A stretch of DNA of 64,000 nt, from the NCBI GenBank assembly GCA_023511295.1, contig JAIMBT010000013.1, forward strand, positions 1-64,000, written 5' to 3'. Shown piece after piece: positions 1 through 35,503 of this stretch (the first letter of the stretch is position 1; every line of letters begins with the position of its first letter). A model generated the notes under the pieces. It was not told where the DNA came from and ran no database searches. It was given only the letters and a program-made list of their open reading frames with translations. The position numbers were made by a program, and so were the translations under genes. The DNA comes from Alicyclobacillus sp. Lineage in GTDB: Bacteria > Bacillota > Bacilli > Alicyclobacillales > Alicyclobacillaceae.

Positions 1-780
<780 letters not shown>

Positions 781-1493: not shown

Positions 1494-1569
1494 GAGCCAT
1501 TAGCTCAGTTGGCAGAGCACCTGACTTTTAATCAGGGTGTCGCTGGTTCGAATCCAGCATGGCTCACCA
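1494..1569 (+). tRNA. tRNA-Lys (UUU)
   Basis: 76-nt cloverleaf. Acceptor GAGCCAT pairs with ATGGCTC, the anticodon loop CTTTTAA gives UUU, the T-loop is TTCGAAT, and CCA is encoded. First of nine tRNAs. Confidence 0.97.
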
Positions 1570-1572
1570 CGC

Positions 1573-1647
1573 GCCACCTTGGCTCAGGGGTAGAGCAGCT
1601 CACTCGTAATGAGCAGGTCGTCGGTTCGAATCCGACAGGTGGCTCCA
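1573..1647 (+). tRNA. tRNA-Thr (CGU)
   Basis: 75-nt cloverleaf starting 3 nt after tRNA-Lys. Acceptor GCCACCT pairs with AGGTGGC, the anticodon loop CTCGTAA gives CGU, and CCA is encoded. One of two Thr tRNAs in the cluster. Confidence 0.96.
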
Positions 1648-1718
1648 CACGGGCAACTTCTCCGTTGCCCGATATCCCGCTGGACTTGGTTGGACAGCGG
1701 ACCCACATCACCATACGC

Positions 1719-1795
1719 GCGCCCGTAGCTCAGTCGGATAGAGCGTTTGACTACGAATCAAAAGGTCGGGAGTTCGAATCTCTCCGGGCGCGCCA
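1719..1795 (+). tRNA. tRNA-Arg (ACG)
   Basis: 77-nt cloverleaf. Acceptor GCGCCCG pairs with CGGGCGC, the anticodon loop CTACGAA gives ACG (presumably modified to ICG), and CCA is encoded. Confidence 0.97.
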
Positions 1796-1802
1796 TTTCA
1801 TC

Positions 1803-1879
1803 CGGAGCATAGCGCAGCTTGGTAGCGCGCCTGCCTTGGGAGCAGGAGGTCGTGGGTTCAAATCCCGCTGCTCCGACCA
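1803..1879 (+). tRNA. tRNA-Pro (UGG)
   Basis: 77-nt cloverleaf. Acceptor CGGAGCA pairs with TGCTCCG, the anticodon loop CTTGGGA gives UGG, the D-arm is the usual AGCGCAGC form of tRNA-Pro, and CCA is encoded. Confidence 0.97.
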
Positions 1880-1957
1880 GGTCCAGCCGGACGAAAGCTC
1901 GAGACCGTTGTCAGCGGTTCGCCCGTGCGACATCCGAGCTTGGTGCACCGGGTTCCT

Positions 1958-2033
1958 GGGGGTATAGCTCAGTTGGGAGAGCACCTGCCTTGCAAGCAGG
2001 GGGTCATCGGTTCGAATCCGTTTACCTCCACCA
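1958..2033 (+). tRNA. tRNA-Ala (UGC)
   Basis: 76-nt cloverleaf. Acceptor GGGGGTA pairs with TACCTCC, including the G3:U70 wobble that identifies tRNA-Ala. The anticodon loop CTTGCAA gives UGC. CCA is encoded. Confidence 0.97.
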
Positions 2034-2064
2034 CCGCCTTGGAGCCTGTCCTCCAAGGTCGCGT

Positions 2065-2139
2065 TCCTCGATAGCTCAGCGGTAGAGCATCCGGCTGTTA
2101 ACCGGAGGGTCGTAGGTTCGAATCCTACTCGGGGAGCCA
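2065..2139 (+). tRNA. tRNA-Asn (GUU)
   Basis: 75-nt cloverleaf. Acceptor TCCTCGA pairs with TCGGGGA (with one wobble), the anticodon loop CTGTTAA gives GUU, and CCA is encoded. Confidence 0.97.
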
Positions 2140-2140
2140 C

Positions 2141-2216
2141 GCTCCCATAGCTCAGTCGGCAGAGCGCATCCATGGTAAGGATGAGGTCATCGGTTCAAAT
2201 CCGATTGGGAGCTCCA
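2141..2216 (+). tRNA. tRNA-Thr (GGU)
   Basis: 76-nt cloverleaf starting 1 nt after tRNA-Asn. Acceptor GCTCCCA pairs with TGGGAGC, the anticodon loop ATGGTAA gives GGU, and CCA is encoded. Confidence 0.96.
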
Positions 2217-2240
2217 CAGGCCGGTCTGTTGGACAGGTTC

Positions 2241-2316
2241 GGGCGATTAGCTCAGCTGGGAGAGCACCTGCCTTACAAGCAGGGGGTCGGCGGTTCGAAC
2301 CCGTCATCGCCCACCA
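2241..2316 (+). tRNA. tRNA-Val (UAC)
   Basis: 76-nt cloverleaf. Acceptor GGGCGAT pairs with ATCGCCC, the anticodon loop CTTACAA gives UAC, and CCA is encoded. Confidence 0.97.
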
Positions 2317-2323
2317 ACTTCAT

Positions 2324-2417
2324 GGAGTGATGGCCGAGTAGGTCGAAGGCGCTCGCCTGCTAAGCGAGTATACGGGCAAAACCCGTATCGAGGGTTCGAA
2401 TCCCTCTCACTCCGCCA
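2324..2417 (+). tRNA. tRNA-Ser (GCU)
   Basis: 94-nt tRNA with the long variable arm of class II tRNAs (stem ACGGG/CCCGT). Acceptor GGAGTGA pairs with TCACTCC, the anticodon loop gives GCU, and CCA is encoded. Last gene of the cluster. Confidence 0.96.
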
Positions 2418-33474: not shown

Positions 33475-34059
33475 TCACACGACCGGAAGCGGCCGCCACG
33501 GCGCCTCTGGCATCGCAACCCGAATGGTATCGCCGGCTCGAACCTGTCCGCCCTGCAGTACGACGCTCATGATGCCGCTTTTGCGGATGACGTTTCCGTC
33601 GGCGTCGGTACAAAGAACCGCCTTCATGAGTCCCGGTTGGAAATCGTCGATGAGCGAGCACGGGTTGCGAAGCCCGGTCACCTCGAGCACCGCGTCCGCA
33701 CCGATGTGCAGACGGGTGCCTGCGGGCAGATTGAGCAGGGCAATGCCGCGCGTCGTGATGTTCTCGCCAAGGCCTCCGGGTCTCACGTGAAAGCCGGCAT
33801 CTCGCAACTCTTCCAAGAGTTCCATATGTATCAGGTGAACCTGGCGCAGATTCGGCTCGGCTGGGTGTTTCTTCATTCGGGCCCGGTGCTGTACTGTTCT
33901 CCCGAGGTGCGCGTCTCCCGCAACACCCAGTCCGGGGAGCAACTCAATCGTTTCAACGGTGGTCTTGCTGAAGCTGTGCGTCGCGCTCTTGTGGACGGCA
34001 GCCACCGCAGCAGATGGCCACGAAGCGACGGCTGCGTCTCCTTGCAATCGGTCGGACAT
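33475..34059 (-). CDS. MOSC domain protein
   Basis: 194 residues from ATG 34059 (SD ggggaggggag). MOSC domain with GLGENITT near 95 and the conserved cysteine in GLRNPC near 135, the likely molybdenum or sulphur ligand. YiiM/YuaD-like members act on N-hydroxylated compounds or carry sulphur for molybdenum cofactor. No Moco genes nearby, so the role is open. Confidence 0.88.
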   Translation of the reverse strand: MSDRLQGDAAVASWPSAAVAAVHKSATHSFSKTTVETIELLPGLGVAGDAHLGRTVQHRARMKKHPAEPNLRQVHLIHMELLEELRDAGFHVRPGGLGENITTRGIALLNLPAGTRLHIGADAVLEVTGLRNPCSLIDDFQPGLMKAVLCTDADGNVIRKSGIMSVVLQGGQVRAGDTIRVAMPEAPWRPLPVV

Positions 34060-34158
34060 CCCGACTCCCCTCCCCACTCCCTGTCACCGACATTGTACCG
34101 TATCGCCACTGGGGTGCTGTCGCATGAAATCGGGTTCGCGACGCCTGCAGGCCAGAGC

Positions 34159-35127
34159 TCAGACGGCGAAGGAGTCGACCTGTGGCGGTTTGCGCCCATG
34201 GCTGTCCGTGCGGTCGGCGGGCAGACGCGACAACTGTAGGACCGCGAGCCAGATGACGGCGAAGCCCACCCACTGTCCGAAGCGGATGGTCTGGTGCAGG
34301 ACGAGCCAGTTCAACAACAGCCCCGTCGCAGGAAACGCCAACTCGGCGATGGTCGCGTACGACGCCCGAACGCCGTCGAGGCCCCAGTAGTATACGAGCA
34401 GACTGATGAGACTCGGCACGAGCGTCTGAAACAACAGGTTGAGCCACACCGGCAGAAGGATGAACGCGCGTCCCATGCCGGACCAATCCGGATGCTCCAC
34501 GAGGACAATCATCAACAACAGTGGCAGTGCGCACGCGAACCGCAGGGCGGTCATCGTCGGAAAGGAGACCTTGCTTACGACCCGCTTACCCATGACGGTC
34601 GATCCGCCCCAGAGCGCAGCCGCGGAGAGGGCGAACAGGGCACCGACGAAGGCACCGTGTCGGCTCTGCGAGAACGGAGTGTGAAACCCGAACGTGAGCA
34701 GGTACGCCCCGACCAGCGCCGCCGGCAACAGAATCCAGTATCCGCGCGGCACACGCTCCTTCAACAGCCAGGCCGCCAGCAGCACCGCGAACAGCGGTTG
34801 CATCTTCTGCATCACCAGGACCACGTTGGCGTTCCCATACGTGAAACCGGCGGTGAAGAGGATAGACGCCAAGGCAGAGCCACCCCACGCCACGAATAAG
34901 ACGGCCAACCAGTCGCCGACATTCAGGCGCCTCAGTTCGCGCCACTTCCACAGCAGTGTGGGTGCCGCAAAGAAGAACAACAAGGCGTGTTCGAGGAAGA
35001 CAATCTGCGACGATGTAAAGTGATGAAGCAGGGCAACGATGAATACCCCGTCCAGGCCCCACATCGCGGCCCCGAGGGCAATCCACCACACGCGCCCGCG
35101 CCCTGTGCGTTGCTCTGTGTTTGTCAA
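34159..35127 (-). CDS. EamA (DMT) family transporter, probable flavin transporter
   Basis: 322 residues from TTG 35127 (GGGAGG 8 nt upstream). About ten membrane helices in two EamA repeats (about 15-145 and 165-300). The gene lies behind an FMN riboswitch (35321-35462) and its terminator (35248-35275). DMT transporters under FMN riboswitches (ImpX) and the related RibN are taken to import riboflavin or FMN. That role here is inference from the riboswitch; the sequence itself only shows the transporter family. Confidence 0.88.
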   Translation of the reverse strand: MTNTEQRTGRGRVWWIALGAAMWGLDGVFIVALLHHFTSSQIVFLEHALLFFFAAPTLLWKWRELRRLNVGDWLAVLFVAWGGSALASILFTAGFTYGNANVVLVMQKMQPLFAVLLAAWLLKERVPRGYWILLPAALVGAYLLTFGFHTPFSQSRHGAFVGALFALSAAALWGGSTVMGKRVVSKVSFPTMTALRFACALPLLLMIVLVEHPDWSGMGRAFILLPVWLNLLFQTLVPSLISLLVYYWGLDGVRASYATIAELAFPATGLLLNWLVLHQTIRFGQWVGFAVIWLAVLQLSRLPADRTDSHGRKPPQVDSFAV

Positions 35128-35247
35128 TTCATCAACCTCCCGGTCTGTCTGTCTTCGCGGCACCGGTTCTGGCGTTCACGGCCTCCGCGAGAGGTTGATA
35201 TGAACCTGGTTGTGAGAGGTGCGCGTGAAAGGCGTCGCAGCGCGAAC

Positions 35248-35275
35248 AAAAAACCCGAGGAGCAGACTCCTCGGG
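35248..35275 (-). terminator. attenuator terminator of the FMN riboswitch
   Basis: Minus strand CCCGAGGAG (35275-35267), loop TCTG, CTCCTCGGG (35262-35254), then six T (35253-35248). About 45 nt after the aptamer, so FMN binding can end transcription before the EamA gene. Confidence 0.93.
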
Positions 35276-35320
35276 GCGCACGCGTAGAACGGAGCACGGC
35301 AAACCGCCATGCCCTACCTC

Positions 35321-35462
35321 ACCTTCTCTCATCCGGACTATACCGTCGGCCTTGGAATTGCACCAAGTCAGTCGACTGCGCGAAGCGCTCGTCGAGTCGC
35401 GGGCTGCATTGCGTCGCAATGGTCACCGCCGGTCGGGAATTTCACCCTGCCCCGAAGGTTCA
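35321..35462 (-). promoter_or_regulatory. FMN riboswitch (RFN element)
   Basis: The minus strand shows the conserved FMN aptamer blocks in order: GGCAGGGTGAAATTCCC, ACCGGCGGT, a variable stem arm (about 35352-35415), and near the 3' end GCCGACGG, AGTCCGGATGAGAGAAGG. Followed by an intrinsic terminator and a transporter gene instead of rib biosynthesis genes. Confidence 0.96.
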
Positions 35463-35477
35463 TATTCACTTACTTTT

Positions 35478-35483
35478 AGTATA
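35478..35483 (-). promoter_or_regulatory. -10 element of the riboswitch-transporter transcript
   Basis: Minus strand TATACT preceded by TGA gives an extended -10 (TGNTATACT), 16 bp upstream of the aptamer. No good -35 is seen. Confidence 0.55.
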
Positions 35484-35503
35484 TCACAGGGGCCAATCCA
35501 GTG

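What the first reader, a model, noticed from the sequence alone, without database searches (positions are those of the whole stretch)
34159..35483. FMN riboswitch with attenuator controlling an EamA transporter
Seen: a complete FMN aptamer, a terminator with six T, then only an EamA/DMT transporter gene. Known: FMN riboswitches control flavin synthesis or uptake genes, and DMT transporters ImpX and RibN are linked to riboflavin. Inference: this is a flavin importer or exporter, and its substrate can be tested directly.
Basis: partly seen in the sequence, partly recalled or inferred. Interest (0 to 1): 0.6.

Follow-up and report, generated by a model that had tools for sequence, protein, structure and literature searches.

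The report
FMN-switched ImpX riboflavin importer gene
This stretch is an FMN-sensing RNA switch in front of a vitamin B2 (riboflavin) importer of the known ImpX family, in a bacterium that also makes its own B2; it is essentially ordinary, with a mildly unusual extra base-pairing element between the RNA's terminator and the gene.

Summary
A full FMN aptamer (35317-35463, minus strand, 114 bits), a hairpin terminator with six T and an EamA/DMT gene (34159-35127) are present. The interpretation also holds and can be sharpened to importer. The protein is the reciprocal best hit of the FMN-switched EamA protein of Fusobacterium vincentii, whose gene carries a published impX primer site just behind its stop codon. 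Both sit in one clade (100/100) that excludes RhtA, YddG, EamA, YijE and all other EamA proteins placed from this genome. F. nucleatum ImpX was shown elsewhere to take up riboflavin. In 41 genomes holding an ortholog, 38 have the riboswitch directly upstream. Antiterminator and terminator share a strand, so FMN should turn the gene OFF, which fits import, not export. The genome's only other FMN riboswitch precedes a complete ribD-E-BA-H set. One feature is less usual: between terminator and gene lies an element complementary both to the aptamer's 5' arm (26/29 leaders p<=0.05, against 5/25 other FMN leaders) and to the ribosome-binding/start region. This suggests a second, translational layer, but folding models support it only weakly, and not in the window itself. 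RibN could not be placed. Known kind, new member; low interest.

The parts
35478..35486 (-). probable extended -10 promoter TGATATACT; transcript starts just before the aptamer
   Evidence: sequence; TGnTAnACT-like motif at the same place in most ortholog leaders; no -35 box recognised by the scan
35317..35463 (-). FMN riboswitch aptamer (RF00050), complete
   Evidence: cmscan 114.2 bits, model 1-138
35449..35457 (-). antiterminator strand CUUCGGGGC (aptamer 5' side), pairs with the 5' strand of the terminator
   Evidence: duplex -18.5 kcal/mol in the window, an equivalent duplex in the other 28 leaders
35456..35465 (-). aptamer 5' arm AUAUGAACCU, perfectly complementary to the element downstream of the terminator
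   Evidence: E -14.9, z -4.5
35248..35275 (-). intrinsic terminator hairpin (35275-35254) and six T (35253-35248)
35198..35207 (-). post-terminator element AGGUUCAUAU (orthologs GAAGGUUCAAUUCA), complement of the aptamer 5' arm
35191..35199 (-). anti-SD strand AUCAACCUC, pairs with GAGGUUGAU over the Shine-Dalgarno
   Evidence: sequence; minimum free energy fold
35131..35139 (-). SD-side strand GAGGUUGAU (inside GGGAGGTTGATGAA)
34159..35127 (-). impX-type EamA/DMT transporter gene, 322 aa, TTG start
   Evidence: PF00892; clade with Fusobacterium ImpX; QK.QP / YY.GL / AT..EL..P signature; DMT fold, mean pLDDT 81

Best explanation
The locus is an FMN-repressed riboflavin uptake gene of the ImpX type in a riboflavin-prototrophic member of the Alicyclobacillaceae. 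When FMN is plentiful the aptamer forms its closing stem P1, the terminator is free to form, and transcription stops. When FMN is low, the aptamer's 5' arm (CUUCGGGGC) pairs with the 5' half of the terminator, so RNA polymerase reads into impX, and the 10-helix EamA/DMT carrier brings in external riboflavin. Shown here: aptamer, terminator, competing antiterminator pairing, orthology to Fusobacterium ImpX, deep conservation of the pairing of riboswitch and gene. Inferred: FMN binding, direction of transport, substrate. Further inferred and weaker: after read-through, an element between terminator and gene pairs with the same 5' arm, and when not so paired it covers the SD/start region, which would add a translational layer.
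For: Full aptamer match. Own genome has two FMN riboswitches, this one and one before ribD, with ribD, ribE, ribBA and ribH in a row. The riboswitch is directly upstream in 16 of 17 genomes with an ortholog among the relatives, 17 of 18 Desulfitobacteriaceae and 5 of 5 further genomes of family f5. Reciprocal best hit with the FMN-switched EamA gene of F. vincentii: 115-122 bits, against 32 bits or less for all other Fusobacterium EamA proteins and 27 or less for the other EamA proteins of this genome. The published impX reverse primer lies 17 nt behind the stop codon of that gene with 3 mismatches, 0 expected. Clade support 100/100 without E. coli RhtA, YddG, EamA, YijE. Clade motif QK.QP in 24 of 24 members and 0 of 23 others. 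F. nucleatum ImpX rescues an E. coli riboflavin auxotroph at low riboflavin (PMC4418817). The antiterminator competes with both P1 and the terminator in all 29 leaders, an OFF switch.
Against: No transport or binding was measured. Identity to Fusobacterium ImpX is only 31%, below the 38% first-pass cut-off of the 2015 survey, though that survey adjusted its cut-off case by case using regulation and synteny. The forward impX primer was not found. One 44% relative in Thermomicrobium sits in an F420 gene cluster without a riboswitch, so the clade may hold more than one substrate.
Confidence: 0.88

Rival explanations
1. Flavin exporter: the carrier secretes riboflavin, FMN or FAD, for example for extracellular electron transfer.
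For: EamA/DMT carriers include exporters (RhtA, YddG, EamA, YijE), and members occur in the genus Desulfosporosinus.
Against: An exporter would be expected to be switched ON by FMN; the antiterminator anatomy is that of an OFF switch in all 29 leaders. The closest tested relative takes riboflavin up. The named amino acid exporters fall outside the clade.
Confidence: 0.06
2. Carrier of a flavin-like or other precursor (for example a deazaflavin or lumazine), merely regulated with the flavin genes.
For: A 44% identical clade member in Thermomicrobium roseum lies between cofC and a nitroreductase gene in an F420 cluster.
Against: That member lacks the FMN riboswitch; the FMN-switched Fusobacterium member belongs to the tested riboflavin transporter family. 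No F420 genes were looked for in this genome.
Confidence: 0.05
3. The aptamer match is a decayed or chance element and the gene is an ordinary amino acid or drug exporter.
For: Two orthologs, in G003 and Desulfosporosinus lacus, have lost the riboswitch.
Against: 114 bits, all conserved cores intact, conserved terminator and antiterminator, 38 of 41 genomes keep it.
Confidence: 0.01

Closest known systems
ImpX (Fusobacterium nucleatum, Desulfitobacterium hafniense), FMN-riboswitch-regulated riboflavin transporter
   Same: EamA/DMT carrier directly behind an FMN riboswitch, in a genome with riboflavin synthesis genes; reciprocal best hit, one clade, same QK.QP / YY.GL / AT..EL..P signature
   Different: 31% identity to the Fusobacterium protein; the leader carries an additional post-terminator element
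RibN (rhizobia, Vibrio), riboflavin transporter
   Same: FMN riboswitch in alphaproteobacteria (PMC4418817); EamA/DMT superfamily (from memory)
   Different: no RibN sequence could be reached, so the relation was not tested
FMN riboswitch with transcription attenuation (B. subtilis ribD type)
   Same: aptamer, antiterminator made from the aptamer 5' side, intrinsic terminator
   Different: second complementary element between terminator and start codon
Dual transcription and translation attenuation as defined by Barrick and Breaker 2007 (PMC2258182)
   Same: idea of controlling both steps in one leader
   Different: [quoted passage not shown] here a separate element downstream of the terminator would do it

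Membership tests
ImpX | EamA/DMT protein (two EamA repeats, about ten helices) | tested here: met
   PF00892 in two stretches; AlphaFold model with DMT fold, best TM-score to choline importer LicB, further matches to 5i20 and nucleotide-sugar transporters
ImpX | FMN riboswitch directly upstream | tested here: met
   38 of 41 genomes with an ortholog
ImpX | bidirectional best hit and common clade with the Fusobacterium prototype | tested here: met
   prototype identified through FMN riboswitch and primer site in F. vincentii, not ATCC 23726 itself
ImpX | first-pass cut-off of the 2015 survey: more than 38% identity over 80% of the prototype (adjustable by regulation and synteny) | tested here: not met
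   30.7% over 96% of ImpX; the paper states that the cut-off was adjusted for some families, so this is an operational filter and not a defining property
ImpX | commonly monocistronic | tested here: inconclusive
   MOSC gene about 80 nt downstream on the same strand, no terminator found between; not conserved near orthologs
ImpX | occurs in genomes with riboflavin biosynthesis | tested here: met
   ribD, ribE, ribBA, ribH behind the second FMN riboswitch
ImpX | riboflavin uptake activity | not testable with these tools
   needs complementation or uptake assay
RibN | clade with rhizobial RibN | not testable with these tools
   no RibN sequence reachable; the Sinorhizobium FMN riboswitch found leads to a ribH-like gene
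FMN riboswitch (RF00050) | six-helix aptamer with conserved core | tested here: met
   alignment end to end
dual transcription/translation attenuation | terminator plus FMN-controlled SD or start codon occlusion | tested here: inconclusive
   arm-element complementarity strong; blocking the element frees the start codon on average (0.16 against 0.07, p 0.006) but not the SD (p 0.95), and in the window frees neither much

The most novel reading that the evidence does not exclude
The impX leaders of Alicyclobacillaceae and Desulfosporosinus carry a tandem expression platform: one aptamer strand (the 5' arm) competes for three partners, P1, the terminator and a separate downstream element that otherwise covers the SD or start codon, so that FMN switches off transcription and, for transcripts that escape, translation.
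Probability: 0.4. Interest if true: 0.4.

Novelty: new member of a known kind. Interest (0 to 1): 0.22.

Why it matters
It places a well-supported ImpX-type transporter in Alicyclobacillaceae, Desulfosporosinus and family f5, and shows that ImpX can be recognised by its riboswitch and a short motif signature even at about 30% identity. The shared leader offers a test case for whether a riboswitch can act at two steps with separate hairpins, and the F420-linked relative suggests that the clade may handle other flavin-like molecules.

Tried and rejected
Exporter reading: rejected on switch polarity and on the tree. RibN placement: attempted through plasmid-borne relatives of a second FMN-switched DMT family and a 3.5 Mb Sinorhizobium record; only a ribH-type target was found. 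SD release model for the post-terminator element: blocking the element does not raise SD accessibility; only start-codon accessibility rises beyond control blocks. The first tree contained a wrong-looking row (own C4) with a branch length of 10, which joined the clade; the tree was rebuilt without it and two further long rows. In the first tree L158 was wrongly labelled as riboswitch-linked; one search shows no riboswitch there. Forward impX primer: no match. Phage collection: no relative. A decayed riboswitch upstream of the two exceptions G003 and D. lacus: not found even at relaxed threshold.

Full report
What is there. On the minus strand, reading from 35486 to 34159: an extended -10 promoter, a complete FMN aptamer (35463-35317), an intrinsic terminator (35275-35254 plus six T), a further 120-nt leader, and a 322-residue EamA/DMT gene with a TTG start at 35127 behind GGGAGG. 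The aptamer scores 114.2 bits against a gathering score of 66.2 and covers the whole model. Chance is not a reasonable explanation.

Genome context. The genome (3.43 Mb, 42 contigs; relatives in the same family include contigs identical in length to those of Alicyclobacillus ferrooxydans and A. suci) has two FMN riboswitches. The other precedes ribD, followed by ribE, ribBA and ribH. The organism should therefore make riboflavin and also has this separately switched carrier, the pattern reported for facilitator-type riboflavin transporters (PMC6593275; PMC4418817).

Conservation. Of 61 related genomes 17 hold an ortholog, 16 of them directly behind the riboswitch; in Desulfitobacteriaceae 17 of 18; five further genomes of family f5 all have it, G476 does not. 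In all, 38 of 41. The three exceptions are G003, Desulfosporosinus lacus and G476. In the first two the post-terminator part of the leader remains while the aptamer is gone. Neighbouring genes of the window are not found near the orthologs, apart from a weak hit to the peptidoglycan-binding gene in two loci, so riboswitch and gene travel as a unit; the 66-69% identity between the window protein and Desulfosporosinus proteins across classes, with alignable leaders, suggests lateral transfer (inference).

Identity. A plasmid-collection record of 2.1 Mb labelled Fusobacterium vincentii holds one EamA gene with an FMN riboswitch in front. The reverse primer that PMC4418817 used to clone F. nucleatum impX matches 17 nt downstream of its stop codon with 3 mismatches, none expected by chance; the forward primer does not match. 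This gene is taken as ImpX. It and the window protein are reciprocal best hits by a wide margin. In a maximum-likelihood tree they share a clade of 24 rows with 100/100 support that excludes E. coli RhtA, YddG, EamA and YijE, the other EamA proteins of this genome that were placed, and the other Fusobacterium EamA proteins that were placed. Three motifs (QK.QP, YY.GL, AT..EL..P) mark 23-24 of 24 clade members and none of 23 others; these were picked from the same data, so they describe and do not independently test the clade. The AlphaFold model has the DMT fold.

Mechanism. In all 29 leaders examined the aptamer 5' side (C)CUUCGGGGC can pair with the 5' half of the terminator (-9 to -21 kcal/mol). 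P1 and the antiterminator share a strand, and the antiterminator and terminator share a strand; hence FMN favours termination. This OFF polarity fits uptake. F. nucleatum ImpX restored growth of E. [quoted passage not shown] The direction and substrate here remain inferred.

Extra element. Between terminator and start codon most leaders have GAAGGUUCAAUUCAAA, complementary to the aptamer 5' arm UGAAUAUGAACCUUC (14 bp with one bulge) and to UUUGAAUUG, which includes the TTG start. In the window the element is AGGUUCAUAU (10 bp to the arm) and the adjoining AUCAACCUC pairs with the SD. The arm complementarity reaches p<=0.05 in 26 of 29 impX leaders (median z -3.0, window z -4.5) but in 5 of 25 other FMN leaders (median z -0.5), three of which are standalone ribB leaders. 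Two positions show double changes that keep the pair (C-G to U-A in L122; U-A to G-C in the GTG-start clade), and pairing exceeds 1000 row shuffles, although related sequences inflate that control. Blocking the element raises start-codon accessibility more than control blocks (0.16 against 0.07, p 0.006) but does not free the SD, and does little in the window. A tandem transcription-and-translation platform is thus plausible but not shown. Barrick and Breaker (PMC2258182) already list dual attenuation, including for FMN riboswitches, with the RBS inside the terminator; a separate element would be a variant.

Limits. 

Noticed in passing
L131, L132, L133, L140, L141 (G018, G020 twice, G042, G046): A second EamA/DMT family (motif HAxWNLFAKQS) sits directly behind FMN riboswitches in relatives of this organism; it is not in the ImpX clade and could be RibN-like or a further riboflavin transporter family.
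   Followed up: partly
L164:5998-6954 (Thermomicrobium roseum NC_011961.1): An ImpX-clade carrier (44% identity) lies in a cofD-cofC-DMT-nitroreductase cluster without FMN riboswitch, suggesting deazaflavin transport.
   Followed up: partly
L046 (G003) and L004 (Desulfosporosinus lacus): Orthologs without riboswitch that keep the post-terminator element; in G003 it forms a perfect 13-bp hairpin with the SD/start region, and in D. lacus the leader is replaced upstream of the 3' half of the terminator.
   Followed up: partly
L089, L094, L120 and similar (Desulfitobacteriaceae): Standalone ribB genes behind their own FMN riboswitch, with leaders that also show complementarity between aptamer arm and the region before the start codon.
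   Followed up: no
L138/L148 (G013:C1:41321): FMN riboswitch (78 bits) followed by an apparently truncated or frameshifted impX.
   Followed up: no
L055/L142 (G053): Ortholog whose riboswitch has no terminator; the SD (AAGGAG) lies inside the P1 3' strand, a direct translational switch.
   Followed up: no
NZ_CP084075.1 and NZ_CP104127.1: Plasmid records of 2.1 and 3.5 Mb that look like mislabelled whole chromosomes.
   Followed up: no
window 33475-34077 (-): MOSC-domain gene about 80 nt behind impX, possibly read through.
   Followed up: partly
window 1-780 (-) and 1494-2414 (+): 5' part of a 16S rRNA gene cut by the window edge and a divergent cluster of nine tRNA genes.
   Followed up: no
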